This document shows positions 4,783-16,060 of a DNA stretch of 22,272 bases, in pieces. The DNA comes from a virus. Numbering within the stretch: position 1 is the stretch's first letter; every line of letters begins with the position of its first letter. The DNA lies in IMG/VR virus record IMGVR_UViG_3300048590_000800, positions 1 to 22,272 of that record; one strand, 5' to 3'. The position numbers and the translations under genes are program-made. A model generated the notes under the pieces. The model searched no databases. It was not told the DNA's origin and saw only the letters and a program-made list of their open reading frames with translations.

Positions 4783-5007
4783 GCCCCCGCGCGCGATTTT
4801 TCGCAACGGAATGTCACGCAAGCGCCTCCCGCCTCCCGCACCCTCCCGCCATCGCTGCCGGCCTGCGCCCTCGAACACCGCCACCCCGGACCCCGGGACG
4901 CGATCTTGGGGGCCGAAATTCAGCAGGGAGGGCAGGGGCAGGCGCGCAAACCCGTGGAACTGCCCCGCGCCGGACACCTAAGCCATTGATCCCCTAAGAA
5001 AATGTTG

Positions 5008-5309
5008 TCCACGTTTTGTTGCGAAACTTCCACGGTTTGCCCCTCGCACTTCCACGGTTTGCGCCAAAACTTCCACATGGACACTTTCCCGATTCCACCC
5101 TGTTCTTCTTCTTTAGATGATTGATTTAGAGAGAGAAACAGTGAGGAAGGCGGGGCGAGAGCAGTTCCACTGCTTGAAACAACCGATTGAATCCGACTTC
5201 CACGTTTTCAAACCCCCTTCCACGGGAAAACGTGGAAGTCGTGGAGGCGCAGTTTTCTTGTGCGATCAATGGCTTATGTGTACGGTGCGGGGCACTTCCA
5301 CGGTTCCAC
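5008..5309. repeat. Phased TCCAC motif array, possible attP arm sites or iterons
   Basis: TCCAC, often within ACTTCCACGG, occurs on the + strand at 5008, 5029, 5051, 5072 and 5094, then at 5166, 5199, 5219, 5297 and 5305, and inverted (GTGGA) at 5232 and 5241. The first five are spaced 21, 22, 21 and 22 bp, two helical turns apart, so bound proteins would line up on one face. A repeat-free AT-rich gap (about 5100-5160) splits the array in two. It lies directly before the tyrosine recombinase gene, as an attP with arm and core sites would. The 4783-5000 stretch just upstream shows nothing clear beyond C-rich repeats. Confidence 0.6.
5195..5240. repeat. 15-bp perfect inverted repeat
   Basis: The arm GACTTCCACGTTTTC (5195-5209) is repeated as its exact reverse complement at 5226-5240 around a 16-nt loop that itself holds one more TCCAC. 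It lacks a T-run, so it is more likely a protein-binding or recombination site than a terminator. Confidence 0.7.
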
Positions 5310-5316
5310 ACGGGAA

Positions 5317-6390
5317 ATGCCTGTGCCCCCCCTGAGCGAGCTGTTGCGCACCTGGTGCGACCACCTGCAACACAACCGCGGCCGCGCTGTCGCGACGGTC
5401 GAGAAGTACCGTCAGGCCATCGAGCGGCTGGCCGCCTGGTGCGCGAACCCGCCGGCCGAACCGCACCTGCGCCCGTCGACGCCCGACCCGCTCAAGCTGA
5501 CGCCGGCTGACCTCAACACCTTCTGCGGTCCGTTCGCGCACTCGACCGGCCTGGGCGCGCGTGCACGCCGCCCCCTGGTCGCAGCGGTGCGCGGCTTCTA
5601 TCGCCACGCGTTTGGCCAGCGCACCCCAGCCGAGAAACTGGAATATCCGAGCAGCGGCCGCCCGCTGCCAACCCCCATGACCCTGGGCAATGCCGAGCGC
5701 ATGCTGTCGTCGTGCGATGTGGCCACGCTGGCCGGCCTGCGCGACGCCGCCATCCTCGGCCTTTTCCTGGGCTGCGGGCTGCGACTGTCCGGGCTGTGTG
5801 CCCTCAATGAATCCGCCCTGGTGTGGACCGAGATTGCCGACCGCGAGCGCCTGCTGCTGCGCGTGCGCGAGAAAGGGGACCGCGAGCGCGTGCTGCCCGT
5901 GCCCGTCGAAGCCACCATGCTGCTGCGCGCTTACCTTGCGCACCCCGAGCTGCGCGACATCGATCGCAACACCGCCAGCGGTGACCGCGTGCTGTTCGTC
6001 AGCTTCCGCAACCGCCAGGTGCCACCGCACGATTACCACGGTGAAGCCAGGCGCATCGCCACCCGCAGCGTCTACGACATGATCTTGCGCCGCGGCCAGT
6101 CGCTGAACATCCCGCGCGACCAGATCCACCCGCACGCACTGCGCCATCTGTTCGGGACCGAGCTCGCCGAGTCCGACATCGATCTACTGCAGCGCCAGGC
6201 CCTCATGGGACACGCTGACCCGAAGAGCACCGAGATCTACACGCACCTCGCATCCCGAAAGCTCGCGCAGTCCGTCGACCGAGCCGCGCCGCTGTCGAAA
6301 ATGCGCGGCGCCTTGCTCGACACCCTGCGCGCCACGGATCGGGAAATGCTGAAGGCCAAGCGCCCGCGCGTTCACCCGCCCGACGTTTAG
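5317..6390 (+). CDS. Tyrosine recombinase / phage integrase (XerC/D-like)
   Basis: A 357-aa site-specific recombinase with an N-terminal SAM-like DNA-binding domain (about 1-115) and a C-terminal catalytic domain. The active site is complete: Arg156 in CGLRLSGL, Lys186 in REKGD, His273 and Arg276 in HPHALRH, His299 in MGHAD and Tyr308 in IYTH. It would cut and rejoin attP and attB through a 3'-phosphotyrosine. The ATG at 5317 (MPVPPL) was preferred; a GTG at 5260 in the same frame would add 19 residues that overlap the TCCAC repeats. It lacks features that mark integron integrases. The repeat array just upstream is its likely DNA partner. Confidence 0.9.
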   Translation: MPVPPLSELLRTWCDHLQHNRGRAVATVEKYRQAIERLAAWCANPPAEPHLRPSTPDPLKLTPADLNTFCGPFAHSTGLGARARRPLVAAVRGFYRHAFGQRTPAEKLEYPSSGRPLPTPMTLGNAERMLSSCDVATLAGLRDAAILGLFLGCGLRLSGLCALNESALVWTEIADRERLLLRVREKGDRERVLPVPVEATMLLRAYLAHPELRDIDRNTASGDRVLFVSFRNRQVPPHDYHGEARRIATRSVYDMILRRGQSLNIPRDQIHPHALRHLFGTELAESDIDLLQRQALMGHADPKSTEIYTHLASRKLAQSVDRAAPLSKMRGALLDTLRATDREMLKAKRPRVHPPDV

Positions 6391-6512
6391 AACTCGTATT
6401 GCTCCGGCCTGCCTCACCCTTGAAGACTGTGTTTGTAGGTGGGTGCAGCGGTTCCAGAAACTCACCCTAAAAACGGCCTAAATCGCCAGACGTTCAGAAC
6501 TGCGCGTTGCTC
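6382..6512 (+). repeat. Imperfect direct repeats after the integrase
   Basis: A 23-bp segment over the integrase stop (6382-6404, GACGTT..AGAACT..TTGCTC) recurs with a few changes at 6489-6512. The second copy overlaps a 7-bp inverted repeat ACTGCGC/GCGCAGT (6499-6525). The 6391-6569 stretch holds no other gene I can support. Confidence 0.45.
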
Positions 6513-6569
6513 ACAAAAGCGCAGTCCCATGGATCCCACCACCAGCCACGCCAACGGGTTGCAGACCGT

Positions 6570-7079
6570 ATGCACACACAAACACGCAGTTCATCCGCAG
6601 GAATCAATGCCGCACCGCCTGATTCGATCCCGTGCGACTCCACCCATGACCGCACCCCGGGGGCTCGGCGACCAGGCGCCCGACCGTCGACCCCGGGGGG
6701 CGGGTACCTCAACATCTGCACTGCTTTTGAAGCTGCCGTAGGCAGCGCGGCGCGCGCGCCGGCCGACCCGCGCATCGACGAGCTGCGCCGGATGAGCCTG
6801 CCGCGCGTCTGGCTGCGCGTGGCCGAAGCGATCGGCTACGAGACGTTCATGGACCTGTGGCGCGTGCTCTGTTCCGACGAATCGGTCCAGAACGACCGCC
6901 AGCGCGTGCGCGTGCCGTTGTTCTCGAAATACACCCGGTACCAGCGCAACCAGGTGATCCGGCGTCTGCACGAGGAAGGGCAAACGCCGAACGCGATCCG
7001 CCGCTACATTGCGCGGGCGACCGGCGAACGCCTGTGCAAAAGCACCGTGCTGACCGTGCTGAGGATCAAGGGCGAATGA
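6570..7079 (+). CDS. HTH protein coupled to the serine recombinase (possibly Mor-like)
   Basis: The well-formed part is the last ~100 residues: an N-terminal helical unit (LPRVWLRVAEAIG, then FMDLW), a linker with RVRVPLF, and a helix-turn-helix from RNQVIRRLHEEG to STVLTVLR. This order recalls the Mor/C transcription activators of Mu-like phages, but the match is by eye. The start is uncertain: ATG at 6570 gives 169 aa with a Pro/Arg/Ser-rich N-terminus, and ATG 6792 would give a short form; neither has a strong ribosome site. The stop overlaps the recombinase ATG (ATGA), so it may serve as a directionality or regulatory partner. Confidence 0.55.
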   Translation: MHTQTRSSSAGINAAPPDSIPCDSTHDRTPGARRPGARPSTPGGGYLNICTAFEAAVGSAARAPADPRIDELRRMSLPRVWLRVAEAIGYETFMDLWRVLCSDESVQNDRQRVRVPLFSKYTRYQRNQVIRRLHEEGQTPNAIRRYIARATGERLCKSTVLTVLRIKGE

Positions 7080-8707
7080 AGACCGCTGTCATCTATGCGC
7101 GCGTCAGCGACCGCAAGCAGGCCGAGGAAGACGTGTCGGTACCGTCTCAGGTCGACGCGGCGCGCGCGAAGGCGGAAGAGCTTGGCGCGACGGTGCTGCG
7201 CGTCTTCACCGACGACGGCCGTAGTGGGTACCGCGAAGCCTCGCGCCCCGGCTTCGATGCCGCGATGGACTTGGCCGTGACCTATCCGGCGACGCACTTC
7301 ATCGTCTGGTCCAGCTCGCGCTTTGCGCGCAACCGCGTCGACGCGACGCTGCGCAAGGTCGAGCTCGACAAGGCCGGCGTGCAGCTGGTCTACATCACGA
7401 CACCGATCGACCGGAACACCGACAGCGGCTTCATCCTCGACAGCGTGATGGAGATGGTCGACGAGCTGCGTTCACGGCAGATCGGCGCCGACACGCGCCG
7501 ATCGATGATCAGCAACGCGCGTGCCGGCTTCTTCTGTGGCGGCGTGCCGCCGTTCGGGTATCGGTCGGCCCCGTCGCCGGATAATCCGAAGCGCCGGGTG
7601 CTGGTGGTCGACGACTACGAGGCCGGCCTGGTGCGCGAGATCTTCGCGATGCGCTTGAAGGGGCTCGGAGGCAAGGGAATCGCCGCTGCATTGAACGCAC
7701 GCGGTGAACTGAACCGCGGTGCGCGTTGGAGCACGACCACGGTGCTGTCGCTGCTGCGTGCCGAGTCTGTGATCGGCCAGACCGTGTTCAACCGGAAGAA
7801 TCGCAAGACGATGCGGCTCAACCCGCGAGATACGTGGCTGATGATCCAGAGCCATGCGGCCATCGTCGACGCCGACACATGGTCCGCCGTGCAGTCGATG
7901 ATCGATGCCGCGGCCGACCGCTGCACGCACGGGTCGCCGAACAGCACGCACGCCTTCACCGGCATCTTGCGCTGTGGCCGCTGCGGCGCAGGCATGCAGA
8001 TCGAGACGGCGAAGGGGCGCAGCGCGCGCTACAGCTACTACAACTGCCGCAACGCGATGCGCGCGTCCGGCTGCGAGAACCGACGCCTGCCCGCGCCGGC
8101 CGTCGACAGCTACCTGATCGACGTGATCATGGACCGCGTGTTGAGCCCGGCGAACCTGCGAGACGTGGTGCAGAGCATCGAAGCCGAATACGGCCGCGCG
8201 GCGGCGAACCGGAACCGCGAGCGCGGTGCGCTGTTGCAACGCCTGCGAGAGATCCAGGCCCGCAACTCGAAGCTCTACGACGTGCTCGAACTGTACGGCC
8301 GCGACGCACCGAATCTGGCCGACCTGACGCAACGCATGCGGGACAACAACGCCGCGATCAAGGCCATCGAGCAACAGGTCCGGGCGCTCGACGAGCGCGT
8401 GGATCCGGAACTGACGATCGACGCAGGCTCGGTCGCATCACTCGGCGACTACCTGCGCGAGCTGCTGAAGACCGAGGCGAATGCCGCGAGGGCGAGGGCG
8501 TTTTTCGGTGGGTTCATCCGCGGCATCGTGGCTCACGCGGACCGGTTCACTATCGAATACGACACCGCGAAACTGATCGCTGCTGCGTCGCCGGTTCATA
8601 GTGCGGAATACTGGCTCCCCGAGTCGTGCGTACTGAGAACCGTTGAAGTGCCGATGCTGCGAGGCCTGAGTGCGTCGCGGGGCGGGTTGCGGCTAGCGGC
8701 GGGGTGA
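7076..8707 (+). CDS. Large serine recombinase
   Basis: A 543-aa serine integrase. The resolvase domain begins with IYARVSDRKQ, where Ser11 is the nucleophile, and continues with the Arg motif SSSRFARNRVD (about 79-89). The recombinase domain follows (about 150-270). A zinc ribbon is formed by Cys300, Cys303, Cys324 and Cys333, then a charged coiled coil (about 370-460) and a C-terminal tail. These enzymes integrate phages through attP/attB with double-strand cuts and a 5'-phosphoserine. The start is fixed by the ATGA overlap with the HTH gene. It ends by overlapping the oppositely oriented repressor by 15 bp. A complete tyrosine integrase lies just upstream, which is unusual. Confidence 0.93.
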   Translation: MKTAVIYARVSDRKQAEEDVSVPSQVDAARAKAEELGATVLRVFTDDGRSGYREASRPGFDAAMDLAVTYPATHFIVWSSSRFARNRVDATLRKVELDKAGVQLVYITTPIDRNTDSGFILDSVMEMVDELRSRQIGADTRRSMISNARAGFFCGGVPPFGYRSAPSPDNPKRRVLVVDDYEAGLVREIFAMRLKGLGGKGIAAALNARGELNRGARWSTTTVLSLLRAESVIGQTVFNRKNRKTMRLNPRDTWLMIQSHAAIVDADTWSAVQSMIDAAADRCTHGSPNSTHAFTGILRCGRCGAGMQIETAKGRSARYSYYNCRNAMRASGCENRRLPAPAVDSYLIDVIMDRVLSPANLRDVVQSIEAEYGRAAANRNRERGALLQRLREIQARNSKLYDVLELYGRDAPNLADLTQRMRDNNAAIKAIEQQVRALDERVDPELTIDAGSVASLGDYLRELLKTEANAARARAFFGGFIRGIVAHADRFTIEYDTAKLIAAASPVHSAEYWLPESCVLRTVEVPMLRGLSASRGGLRLAAG

Positions 8708-11412: not shown

Positions 11413-11753
11413 ACGCGATCACGCTCGAAACGATCGCCGGCCGCATCAACCTGGTGAGGAACGACGGCGGCGTCACGCTGAATTGCGGCCCGATCTGTCT
11501 GATCCTCAAGACCAGCGAACCGCCGACGCTCGACCGATTGCTCCCGATCGCGGTCGAGCGACTGCAGCATGCCGATCTTCGCCCCCTGTACATGGAAAGC
11601 GGCGTGCCCGGTTCGCCGTTGCTGCGCATCTATGCGGCCATCCACGAGGACGTGATCTACGTGAGCGGCGGCCCCTTCGTGCTTCGCCTGGGCGTGCTGG
11701 ACTGCGACGATCTCGCGGCGGCCATTGTCTCGCTGACGGGAGATGCGTCATGA
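11409..11753 (+). CDS. Unknown 114-aa early protein
   Basis: A compact protein with many beta-type segments (LNCGPICLILK, VIYVSGGPFVLRLGVL) and two cysteines near the N-terminal third. No family is recognised. ATGA overlaps on both sides place it firmly in the early operon, directly before the small tyrosine recombinase. Confidence 0.6.
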   Translation: MNAITLETIAGRINLVRNDGGVTLNCGPICLILKTSEPPTLDRLLPIAVERLQHADLRPLYMESGVPGSPLLRIYAAIHEDVIYVSGGPFVLRLGVLDCDDLAAAIVSLTGDAS

Positions 11754-12367
11754 CGCACCGCTCTGCCAACCGCGTGGTCTTCGAGCGGTATCTCACCGAA
11801 GCCGAAGAGCGCCAGATTTTGCAGTGCATTGCCGGTTGCAGCGGCGTGCTGGCCGCGCGCGACCACGCCTGGATGCGTCTGCTGCGCCAGACCGGCATCC
11901 GCGTCGAATCGCTTGCGCTGCTGAACGTTCGCGATGCGCGTGAGGCGCTGGCCAACGGCCGCCTCGTGTTGCGCCCCGAGATCTGCAAGGGCGGCCGCGG
12001 CTACGACGTGCGCGTGAACAAGGCCGCCGAGCAGGCGCTGCGCGATCTGCTGCGCGTGCGCCGGGATATGGATGCACCGGCCGACCCCGACGCACCGCTC
12101 GTGATGTCGCAGAAGTCCCGCGGCATGAGCATCCGCAGCTTTCAGGACCGCATGGCGCACTGGGTCGAAGCGTCGGGCCTCAAGGTCGATGCCTCGCCGC
12201 ACTGGTGGCGGCACACGTTCGCGCAGCGCATCAAGGCGCGCAGCGAATCGATCGACCCCATCGGCATCGTCCAAGTGGCACTGGGTCAGCGCACGAGGCA
12301 AGCAGCCAGCATCTACACACTGCCGACGCGCGAAGAAGTCGATGCCGCCATCGAGGGGGCCCGCTGA
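11750..12367 (+). CDS. Short tyrosine recombinase (catalytic domain only)
   Basis: A 205-aa protein that holds only the catalytic half of a tyrosine recombinase: Arg51 in TGIRVESL, Lys80, His151 and Arg154 in HWWRH, and Tyr189 in SIYTLP. The conserved GH motif before the tyrosine is GQ here (Gln180), and the N-terminal core-binding domain is absent. It is either an accessory invertase/resolvase that needs a partner, or a domesticated DNA-binding protein. Co-translation within the replication operon (ATGA upstream, TGATG downstream) suggests a role in genome resolution or recombination rather than integration. It is the second tyrosine recombinase in the window. Confidence 0.8.
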   Translation: MTHRSANRVVFERYLTEAEERQILQCIAGCSGVLAARDHAWMRLLRQTGIRVESLALLNVRDAREALANGRLVLRPEICKGGRGYDVRVNKAAEQALRDLLRVRRDMDAPADPDAPLVMSQKSRGMSIRSFQDRMAHWVEASGLKVDASPHWWRHTFAQRIKARSESIDPIGIVQVALGQRTRQAASIYTLPTREEVDAAIEGAR

Positions 12368-13318: not shown

Positions 13319-16060
13319 ATGGCATCGATTCAAGAACTCAAGCGGCTGATCGACCTGCACGATCTGGCCGACAAACTCGGCCTCGAACGGCCGGGCGGGC
13401 AGGGCAATTACCGCTCGCCGCACCACAAGGACAAGAACCCGTCGTTGAGCGTGTTCAGTGACGGCAAGGCATGGAAGGACCACAGCGGCGAAGCGGGTGG
13501 CGACTGCATCAGCTTCGTGCAGTTCGTCGAGAACCTGCCCGACGTGCCCAGCGCGATGCGTCGCCTGCACGAGCTGTACAACCTGCCGAACGACAAGCCC
13601 GCCGCCGACGCACCGCGGCGTGAGCGCAGCCGCGAAGAATTCATCGCGGACCAGTGCCTGGCCAAGCGTTCGGGCGCTTTCGAATACCTGAAAGGCCGCG
13701 GCATCGCCGAAGCGGCCCTGATCTACGCGGCCGAACGCGGCACGCTGGGCTTCAACGACTGGACGAAGCCAGGCATGGAGCCCGGCGGCTTCGGCTACGG
13801 CGGCCCGGCCGCGGCCTTCATCACCCGCGATCTGCAGACCGGCGAAGCGCTGGCCGTCGACTTCCGCTATCTGGATCCGTCGCTCAATGGTGGCGTGAAG
13901 ACCAAGACGGTCGGCCCCAAGGACGGCGTGCCCTGGTTCGCCTGCGCGCGCCGGGTGAAGGCCGCCGACACCATCTACATCGTCGAGAGTTCGATCAATG
14001 CGCTCTGCATCGAGTCGCTGAACCTCTACAAGTCGGCCGCCGTGGCCATTCGTGGCGCGAGCAACTGGCAGACCATCGACTGGCGCTTCCTGATCGGCAA
14101 GCAGGCGGTGCTCGTGCTCGATGCCGACCTGCCGAACGAGAAGGGCGAGCGCCCCGGCGCGAAGGCCGCCTGGGGCCTGTATGACCTGCTGACCGGGCTC
14201 AATGTGGCCACCGTCATGGTCGACCAGGCGAGCTGGTACGCCGACGAAGTGAACGACGTGGCGGACATCGCCAAGAAGTTCGGCCTGGACAACCTGAAAG
14301 AACGCCTGCAGACCATAGAACCGTGGTGTATTCCCGGCCTGGTCGGCAAGGACGGCCCCGGCGGCAAACAGCGCGTGTACCTGCCGGCGCACGACTTCGC
14401 CGTGTACTGGCGTTACCGCGCGAAGAACGACTTCACGACCTTCGTCAGCAAGGTCGAGAAGGACGGCGACGACGGCGGCGAAACGCTCAAGTTCGAAGAC
14501 CTGTGCGGTTTCCGCATCGCGAGCATCACGCGCGTGACGATCGCGGGCGCCACCAGCACGATGTCCGGTGAAACCGACGACCAGCCCGAGACACAATTTG
14601 CCGTGTCGGTTCAGACCCCGCGTCACGGCGGCAAGCTGATCCGCCGCGTCTACGAAGACGACAAGCTGCACAACACCGACCAGTGGAAGAAGTTCGGCCC
14701 GATCTTCAACCAGTCGAAGTTCCTGCGCCTGGTCAACATCCTCGAACGCACCGCGCACTGCGGCGCGCGCGATGCGGTGAACTTCGTCGGCCTGTGCTGG
14801 CGCAACGGCCGCCTCGTGGTCAACGAAGGCCCGGACTGCTACTTCCGCGAGCCCGAGAAACAGTGCCCGTACAACCTGCTGACCTTCCCCAGCGGCCCGC
14901 GTGCCGACGCGCGCCGGGTGATCGAGGCCTACCAAACCACGTTCAAGGACAACGCCGCGGCCATCATGCTGGTGTGGGCGTTGGGCGGCCACCTGAAAGC
15001 CTTCCTCGGATTCTGGCCGCACCTGATCTGCCAGGCCGCCAAGGGCAGCGGCAAGAGCACGCTGATCAAGCGCCTGGAGCGCAGCATCGGCATGACGATG
15101 TTCTCGGGCCAGTCGTTGCAAACCGAATTCCGCCAGCTCACGACCGTCAGCTACACCAGCCACCCGGTGGGCTGGGAAGAGCTGAGTGCGCGCAAGCAGG
15201 AGATCATCGACAAGGCCGTCGCGATGCTGCAGGAGTGCTACCAGTACACGCCGACCAAGCGCGGCAGCGACATGCTGCCCTACCTGTTGTGCGCGCCCGT
15301 GCTGCTGGCCGGCGAAGACGTGCCGGTGCGCAGCCTGCTCGGCAAGGTGGTGCAGACCGACCTGACGAAGCGCAAGGGGCCGAAGATGCCGGAAGGCCTG
15401 CCGCGCTTCCCGGTGCGCCCGTTCATGGAATACCTGACCACGCTCACGCGCGAAGGCGTCGTCGAGACGATGGAGAAAGCCGCGGCGTGGCTGCGCCAGG
15501 GATCGCGATCACCCGACGACAGCGAAGGCGCGCAGCGTGCGGTGCTGAACTTCGCGGCCGTGCTCACCGCCTGGAAGCTGCTCGCCGACTTCGCCGGCAT
15601 GGAAGTGCGCGCCGGCAGCTTCATGGAAGACCTGCGCGCGCAGATGAACGCCTTTATCCGCGACACCGAGGGCGAGCGCCAGCCCTTCGTCTGGATCATG
15701 GAGATCGTGGCCAGCGAGATCGAGTCGAAACAGTTCCTGCACCCCTACGAGTTCGACGAGATCGACGGCGAGGACTGCATCATCTTCCGGCCGCAACACG
15801 CGATGGACCACATCAGCAGCACCGGCCGCCTGCGCGAGCACTGGAACGGCCTGCCGGTGAAGAGTGGCCGCGTGTTCAAGCAGCAGCTGGCCGGCGCGGG
15901 CGTGATCGTGAAAGACGAGCTGGACCGCCGCATCCACCAGCGCCGCCACGCCCACCTGAGCGCCATCAGCCTCAAGAAGCTCGCCGGCTTCGGCGTCTAC
16001 CTCTCCCAGCCCGAACCCGACTACCAACAGCCGCCGCTGCGCGCTGCGGCCAACTCGTGA
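13319..16060 (+). CDS. Phage primase-helicase
   Basis: A 913-aa replication protein with both activities on one chain. The N-terminus (to about 75) resembles a DnaG-type zinc domain (SPHHKDKNPSLSV and GDCISF), but most metal-binding Cys are missing, so zinc binding may be lost. A Toprim domain shows a Glu in IYIVESS (about 223) and the DxD of LVLDAD (about 265-270). The C-terminal helicase part has a Walker A (AAKGSGKST, about 574-582) and a Walker B-like VGWEEL. It would prime and unwind phage DNA at the fork. It is the largest gene of the early operon; its stop overlaps the next GTG. Confidence 0.9.
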   Translation: MASIQELKRLIDLHDLADKLGLERPGGQGNYRSPHHKDKNPSLSVFSDGKAWKDHSGEAGGDCISFVQFVENLPDVPSAMRRLHELYNLPNDKPAADAPRRERSREEFIADQCLAKRSGAFEYLKGRGIAEAALIYAAERGTLGFNDWTKPGMEPGGFGYGGPAAAFITRDLQTGEALAVDFRYLDPSLNGGVKTKTVGPKDGVPWFACARRVKAADTIYIVESSINALCIESLNLYKSAAVAIRGASNWQTIDWRFLIGKQAVLVLDADLPNEKGERPGAKAAWGLYDLLTGLNVATVMVDQASWYADEVNDVADIAKKFGLDNLKERLQTIEPWCIPGLVGKDGPGGKQRVYLPAHDFAVYWRYRAKNDFTTFVSKVEKDGDDGGETLKFEDLCGFRIASITRVTIAGATSTMSGETDDQPETQFAVSVQTPRHGGKLIRRVYEDDKLHNTDQWKKFGPIFNQSKFLRLVNILERTAHCGARDAVNFVGLCWRNGRLVVNEGPDCYFREPEKQCPYNLLTFPSGPRADARRVIEAYQTTFKDNAAAIMLVWALGGHLKAFLGFWPHLICQAAKGSGKSTLIKRLERSIGMTMFSGQSLQTEFRQLTTVSYTSHPVGWEELSARKQEIIDKAVAMLQECYQYTPTKRGSDMLPYLLCAPVLLAGEDVPVRSLLGKVVQTDLTKRKGPKMPEGLPRFPVRPFMEYLTTLTREGVVETMEKAAAWLRQGSRSPDDSEGAQRAVLNFAAVLTAWKLLADFAGMEVRAGSFMEDLRAQMNAFIRDTEGERQPFVWIMEIVASEIESKQFLHPYEFDEIDGEDCIIFRPQHAMDHISSTGRLREHWNGLPVKSGRVFKQQLAGAGVIVKDELDRRIHQRRHAHLSAISLKKLAGFGVYLSQPEPDYQQPPLRAAANS

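What the first reader, a model, noticed from the sequence alone, without database searches (positions are those of the whole stretch)
5008..5309. TCCAC motifs phased at 21-22 bp around an AT-rich gap
Five motifs are spaced 21, 22, 21 and 22 bp; five more plus two inverted copies follow after an AT-rich gap at about 5100-5160. Phasing by two helical turns implies one-sided protein binding. The layout arm-core-arm directly before int fits attP; an iteron-type origin is the alternative.
Basis: partly seen in the sequence, partly recalled or inferred. Interest (0 to 1): 0.65.

Follow-up and report, generated by a model that had tools for sequence, protein, structure and literature searches.

The report
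Phage replication origin, not attachment site
The regularly spaced TCCAC repeats are most likely the start point for copying this phage's DNA, read by the tip of its own primase-helicase; the site where the phage joins the host chromosome lies about 3.4 kb away, and related phages keep the same layout but use a different repeat word that changes together with the protein.

Summary
TCCAC lies at 5008, 5029, 5051, 5072, 5094, then 5166, 5199, 5219, 5297, 5305, with inverted copies at 5232, 5241 and one more at 4954 (0 of 2000 shuffles gave such a chain). The attP reading is not supported. Related lysogens keep the array whole; the likely attP is at 8593-8641, in the 3' end of the large serine integrase gene, joined to tRNA-Asn in lysogens. 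The array travels with a CHC2/Toprim primase-helicase (13319-16060), not with the tyrosine recombinase beside it. P2-like Burkholderia phages with the same primase but unrelated integrases carry the same layout, and so do plasmid prophage KS14 and its relative FLC5, which lack a tyrosine integrase. Phages with a near relative of this recombinase but another primase carry different repeats. Geometry and two IHF-like sites are conserved while the repeat word differs between phages, all copies together. Word changes covary with primase residues 824 and 878-879 in a predicted C-terminal winged helix, whose best structural match is the SaPIbov1 replication initiator. No experiment was run; origin function is inferred.

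The parts
4952..4959 (-). outermost left iteron, inverted (CCGTGGAA)
   Evidence: the same outer inverted word in relatives (offset 16-)
4979..4991 (-). left IHF-like site (TAAGCCATTGATC; WATCAANNNNTTR on the minus strand, one mismatch)
   Evidence: sequence; present in relatives with other words
5008..5103 (+). five direct iterons at 5008, 5029, 5051, 5072, 5094
5100..5141 (+). pyrimidine-AT-purine hairpin in the AT-rich gap (candidate opening region)
   Evidence: sequence, fold, same layout in relatives
5166..5228 (+). three direct iterons at 5166, 5199, 5219
5227..5245 (-). two inverted iterons (GTGGA at 5232 and 5241)
5264..5276 (+). right IHF-like site (GATCAATGGCTTA)
   Evidence: sequence; related site in 62 of 70 arrays by a relaxed pattern
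5297..5314 (+). tandem pair of end iterons, 8 bp apart
   Evidence: conserved pair in relatives
13319..16060 (+). CHC2/Toprim primase-helicase, proposed initiator
   Evidence: Pfam and PHROG 5629; goes with the array
15671..15997 (+). predicted C-terminal winged helix (residues about 785-893) with candidate specificity residues 824, 878, 879
7076..8707 (+). large serine integrase (more likely the integrase of the phage)
8593..8641 (+). proposed attP of the serine integrase, core 8612-8622 TGGCTCCCCGA shared with the 3' end of tRNA-Asn
5317..6390 (+). tyrosine recombinase next to the array; role unknown

Best explanation
The region 4952-5314 is the phage's replication origin, an iteron array. 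The phage's own primase-helicase (13319-16060) binds the repeated word TTCCACGG through its C-terminal winged helix. Two IHF-like sites probably bend the DNA so that iterons on both sides of the AT-rich hairpin region come together on one face, the AT-rich stretch opens, the helicase loads and the primase domain starts DNA synthesis. Shown from sequence: the array, its conserved geometry, its association with the primase rather than the recombinase, and the covariation of word and protein residues. Inferred: binding by the primase, IHF binding, strand opening and origin activity. Integration is most likely done by the serine integrase at attP 8593-8641, into tRNA-Asn.
For: (1) Double dissociation. 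G404 and G227 tyrosine recombinases are 77% identical, but G404 lacks the window-type primase and has the unrelated word GGGTGCAAGT, against TCCACGGGTT in G227. KS5, KL3, Carl1, AP3, Mana and Musica have integrases without blastp similarity to the window's recombinase, but the same primase and the same array downstream of it. (2) KS14 and FLC5, without a tyrosine integrase (KS14 is a published plasmid prophage), carry the array. (3) In 53 of 80 primase loci from viral contigs a strict pattern finds the array, in nearly all of these within about 0.7 kb after the primase gene, with words at fixed offsets. (4) Among 229 variable primase columns, residue 879 tracks word position 7 best (63 Y with A, 15 H with G) and residue 824 tracks word position 4 best; tree-aware tests p 2e-5, 4e-6 and 1e-7. 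(5) The primase C-terminus is predicted as a winged helix (pLDDT 88.5); the best match by Foldseek and by VIA-align is the SaPIbov1 replication initiator helicase, Z 7.8.
Against: No binding or replication experiment. In P2-like relatives the array adjoins the 3' end of the primase gene, so co-inheritance by linkage could produce part of the covariation; phages with a distant array (window, yong1, L008, KS14) obey the residue 879/word 7 rule but all have H, so they do not test both states. Exceptions exist: L173 (H with A), L165 (N824 and R878 but GCCATGAGTC), G393 (N with G). GC skew is inconclusive: turning points near the array in yong1 and KL3, not in AP3. The window's iterons are more degenerate than those of many relatives. 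The left IHF-like site was an anchor of the array scans, so its conservation there is partly by construction. A structural Z under 8 is only suggestive.
Confidence: 0.85

Rival explanations
1. attP of the adjacent tyrosine recombinase: arm sites with IHF sites around a core at about 5219-5238 (TTCCACGggaaaaCGTGGAA).
For: Lies directly before the recombinase gene; two IHF-like sites; inverted pair with a 6 bp spacer conserved in yong1.
Against: Array whole in lysogens; occurs with unrelated integrases and without a tyrosine integrase; another attP found; in KL3 and AP3 the published integration sites are at the far side of the integrase gene, away from the array.
Confidence: 0.03
2. Regulatory region (operator or enhancer) for the recombinase operon, bound by a repressor or by the Mor-like protein.
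For: It lies upstream of the tyrosine recombinase, Mor-like and serine integrase genes in this group.
Against: Present without these genes in P2-like phages; the word tracks primase residues. A secondary regulatory role is not excluded.
Confidence: 0.06
3. Centromere or copy-number/incompatibility locus rather than the origin itself.
For: Repeats near parA in KS14 and FLC5.
Against: In the annotated P2-like relatives with integrases (KS5, KL3, AP3, Mana, Musica) no par gene is annotated in the stretches read; the word tracks the primase.
Confidence: 0.05

Closest known systems
SaPI Rep and SCCmec Cch/Cch2 initiator helicases with iteron origins
   Same: Helicase with a C-terminal DNA-binding domain that reads short repeats just downstream of its own gene (PMC7581432); the best structural matches of the primase C-terminus are SaPIbov1 Rep (8tch) and Cch (5dgk).
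   Different: Here the helicase is fused to a CHC2/Toprim primase, the array has about a dozen words in a fixed geometry with two IHF-like sites and a hairpin, and the origin may lie kilobases from the gene (window, yong1).
Phage P4 alpha protein and its iteron origin
   Same: Toprim-type primase, helicase and C-terminal DNA-binding domain in one protein acting on an iteron origin (PMC4234260, and general knowledge).
   Different: phmmer with the whole primase matched only DnaG-type primases among solved structures; a P4-like second site (crr) was not looked for.
P2-like Burkholderia phages KS5, KL3, AP3, Carl1, Mana, Musica and plasmid prophage KS14
   Same: Same primase family (53-56% identity) and same array layout.
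   Different: Myoviruses with other integrases or none; words GCCACGAGTC, GCCACGGGTT, GCCCCGAGTC, TCCTCGG; the array is closer to the primase gene.
Serine integrase attP/attB systems
   Same: The proposed attP at 8593-8641 is an imperfect inverted repeat around a short core in the large serine recombinase gene.
   Different: The target is the 3' end of tRNA-Asn, with about 11-15 bp shared.

Membership tests
tyrosine recombinase attP | site is split between the two prophage ends in lysogens | tested here: not met
   array whole in G086 inside a 43.4 kb prophage bounded by TATCTGGCTCCCCGA repeats; whole also in L008, L015, G227, G113
tyrosine recombinase attP | presence depends on its integrase | tested here: not met
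   array beside unrelated integrase types and without a tyrosine integrase in KS14 and FLC5
tyrosine recombinase attP | arm-binding N-terminal domain in the integrase | tested here: inconclusive
   Pfam finds only the catalytic domain, residues 125-312
iteron origin of the P4 alpha / SaPI Rep type | many copies of one short word with regular spacing beside an AT-rich stretch | tested here: met
iteron origin of the P4 alpha / SaPI Rep type | array goes with the gene of the initiator helicase | tested here: met
iteron origin of the P4 alpha / SaPI Rep type | initiator has primase/helicase domains and a C-terminal winged helix | tested here: met
   CHC2 and Toprim by Pfam, GKSTL motif, predicted winged helix matching SaPIbov1 Rep; the helicase part was not modelled
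iteron origin of the P4 alpha / SaPI Rep type | C-terminal domain determines iteron specificity | tested here: inconclusive
   strong covariation of residues 824, 878, 879 with word positions 4 and 7, but indirect and linkage is not fully excluded
iteron origin of the P4 alpha / SaPI Rep type | supports autonomous replication and is bound by the initiator | not testable with these tools
   needs experiment
large serine integrase attP (8593-8641) | imperfect inverted repeat near the integrase gene, half of it joined to host DNA in lysogens | tested here: met

The most novel reading that the evidence does not exclude
A family of phage origins keeps a rigid architecture of about a dozen sites, two IHF-like sites and a hairpin, while the word itself is repeatedly rewritten in all copies at once, in step with two or three residues of the initiator's winged helix; the rewriting may be driven by selection against cross-replication or incompatibility between co-resident phages, plasmid prophages and satellites.
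Probability: 0.35. Interest if true: 0.68.

Novelty: new variant of a known kind. Interest (0 to 1): 0.55.

Why it matters
If right, it supplies the replication origin of a widespread group of betaproteobacterial temperate phages (yong1-like siphoviruses and P2-like Burkholderia phages), for which I found no origin described in the papers searched, and it moves the attachment site of the window phage to the serine integrase gene. The natural series of matched words and winged helices is a ready test bed for how an initiator and all of its iterons change specificity together, and for whether this decides which phages can share a cell.

Tried and rejected
Rejected: attP of the tyrosine recombinase (array whole in lysogens, present without that enzyme). 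Rejected: recombinase as the protein that reads the word (recombinases 77% identical, words unrelated). An early idea that TTCCACG-6 bp-CGTGGAA (5218-5238) is a recombination core was dropped for the same reasons. KS14 and FLC5 first seemed to lack the array; reading a different word showed it. The first word finder gave apparent exceptions to the residue 879 rule (L143, L120, L121); reading words at fixed positions removed them. GC skew was inconclusive. Rfam gave no credible match. phmmer of the primase against solved structures found only DnaG-type primase domains. Integrase searches in plasmids found only distant recombinases. No match to the P4 alpha origin-binding domain appeared in the structure search, which excludes nothing.

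Full report
Observation. TCCAC occurs at 5008, 5029, 5051, 5072, 5094, 5166, 5199, 5219, 5297 and 5305 on the + strand and inverted at 4954, 5232 and 5241. No chain of more than two phased copies appeared in 2000 dinucleotide shuffles of the region.

Surroundings. The window is a fragment of a temperate phage: endolysin, the array, a tyrosine recombinase (5317-6390), a small gene related to one annotated as a Mor-like regulator in yong1, a large serine recombinase (7076-8707), a repressor-like gene, a CII-like gene, a second small recombinase and a CHC2/Toprim primase-helicase. Phage yong1 (MT855965) has the same order and an array in the same place.

First clue. Viral relatives of the recombinase all have arrays at this place, but the repeated word differs: TTCCACG in the window, yong1 and close to it in L008 and L010; GCGCGGGTT in L009; GGGGGCAAG in L014; GGGTGCAAGT in L015; TCCACCA types in L016 to L018. 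Two sites matching the IHF consensus WATCAANNNNTTR or close to it flank most arrays in opposite orientation.

Not attP. Relatives of the recombinase were found as prophages in Burkholderiales genomes. In G086, G113 and G227 the prophage ends at the 3' end of the serine integrase gene, joined to tRNA-Asn. G086 is bounded by 15 bp repeats 43.4 kb apart and holds a whole array. Free phages carry GGTTCATAGT-9 bp-TGGCTCCCCGA-9 bp-ACTGAGAACC in the serine integrase gene (window 8593-8641); lysogens L008 and L015 carry the left half joined to tRNA-Asn sequence. So the serine integrase is the likely integrase. In KL3 and AP3, relatives by primase, the published integration sites lie beyond the integrase gene and not at the array.

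It goes with the primase. P2-like phages KS5, KL3, Carl1, AP3, Mana and Musica share the primase (about 55% identity) but have integrases without blastp similarity to the window's recombinase; each has the same array just downstream of the primase gene. KS14, published as a plasmid prophage without a tyrosine integrase, and its relative FLC5 have it too, with the word TCCTCGG. Conversely G404, whose recombinase is 77% identical to that of G227, lacks this primase, carries another primase-helicase and has the unrelated word GGGTGCAAGT. In 53 of 80 primase loci from viral contigs a strict pattern finds the array, in nearly all within about 0.7 kb of the primase gene. Offsets of the words from the left IHF-like site are nearly constant: one inverted, three direct 21 bp apart, the hairpin gap, two direct 21 bp apart, one 32 bp on, two inverted, and a tandem end pair 8 bp apart.

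Which residues read the word. In 83 non-redundant arrays, tyrosine at primase residue 879 goes with A at word position 7 (63 cases) and histidine with G (15); the other 5 are L173, L242, L016, L018 and G393. N824 and R878 go with C at position 4. Among 229 variable columns these residues score highest for those positions. Correlated-evolution tests on a tree built from the rest of the protein give p of 2e-5, 4e-6 and 1e-7. Linkage between the primase 3' end and the array may add to this, since the two are neighbours in most of these phages. The columns nearest the array are not the best scoring ones, which speaks for a functional link.

Structure. Primase residues 694-913 are predicted with mean pLDDT 88.5; the last part has a winged-helix order of elements, with residue 824 next to a helix start and 878-879 in the last strand. 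The best structural matches are SaPIbov1 Rep (8tch, Z 7.8) and, lower, SCCmec Cch (5dgk, Z 5.4). For SaPI Rep and Cch2 the C-terminal domain is reported to bind iterons directly downstream of the helicase gene (PMC7581432). Z values of this size are suggestive only.

Mechanism. The best-supported reading is an origin: the primase-helicase binds the words through its winged helix, IHF bends the DNA, the AT-rich hairpin region opens and the helicase-primase starts replication. Binding, bending, opening and origin activity are inferred and need the experiments listed.

Novelty. Iteron origins read by the C-terminus of a replicative helicase are known. New here, as far as the papers searched show, are this origin in two unrelated phage groups, its rigid geometry, the repeated wholesale change of the word, and candidate specificity residues.

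Noticed in passing
window 8593-8641; L008:13287, L015:13283, L009:13273, L014:13301: Probable attP of the large serine integrase, with tRNA-Asn 3' end as target.
   Followed up: yes
window 5317-8707: Tyrosine recombinase, Mor-like gene and serine integrase are kept together in most relatives; the job of the tyrosine recombinase is unknown. G104 and G393 show no serine integrase match next to Mor.
   Followed up: partly
L074:9600-10200, L073:25250-25800: KS14 and FLC5 carry the array with the word TCCTCGG; KS14 has Q at the residue equivalent to 878 and T at word position 4.
   Followed up: partly
L004/L270 (yong1): Host given as Microcystis, but its relatives here are Burkholderiales phages and prophages; the host assignment may deserve a check.
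   Followed up: no
L015/G404 and L014: Primase and array replaced together by another primase-helicase and other repeats, with the recombinase module kept.
   Followed up: partly
relatives, between the words at offsets 252 and 284: TGCCTATTTTT, a T-rich element just before an iteron, in 42 of 70 arrays; not found in the window.
   Followed up: partly
upstream of arrays in relatives: CCCCC-n-CCCCC stretches between primase gene and array in 38 of 70.
   Followed up: no
window 11744-12364: A second, catalytic-domain-only tyrosine recombinase of 206 aa, also kept in yong1 and prophages.
   Followed up: no
L076:18399-18595: Tandem CACTCGCACAG-type repeats in a small gene of phage FLC10.
   Followed up: no
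L012: This contig ends exactly in the hairpin gap of the array.
   Followed up: no
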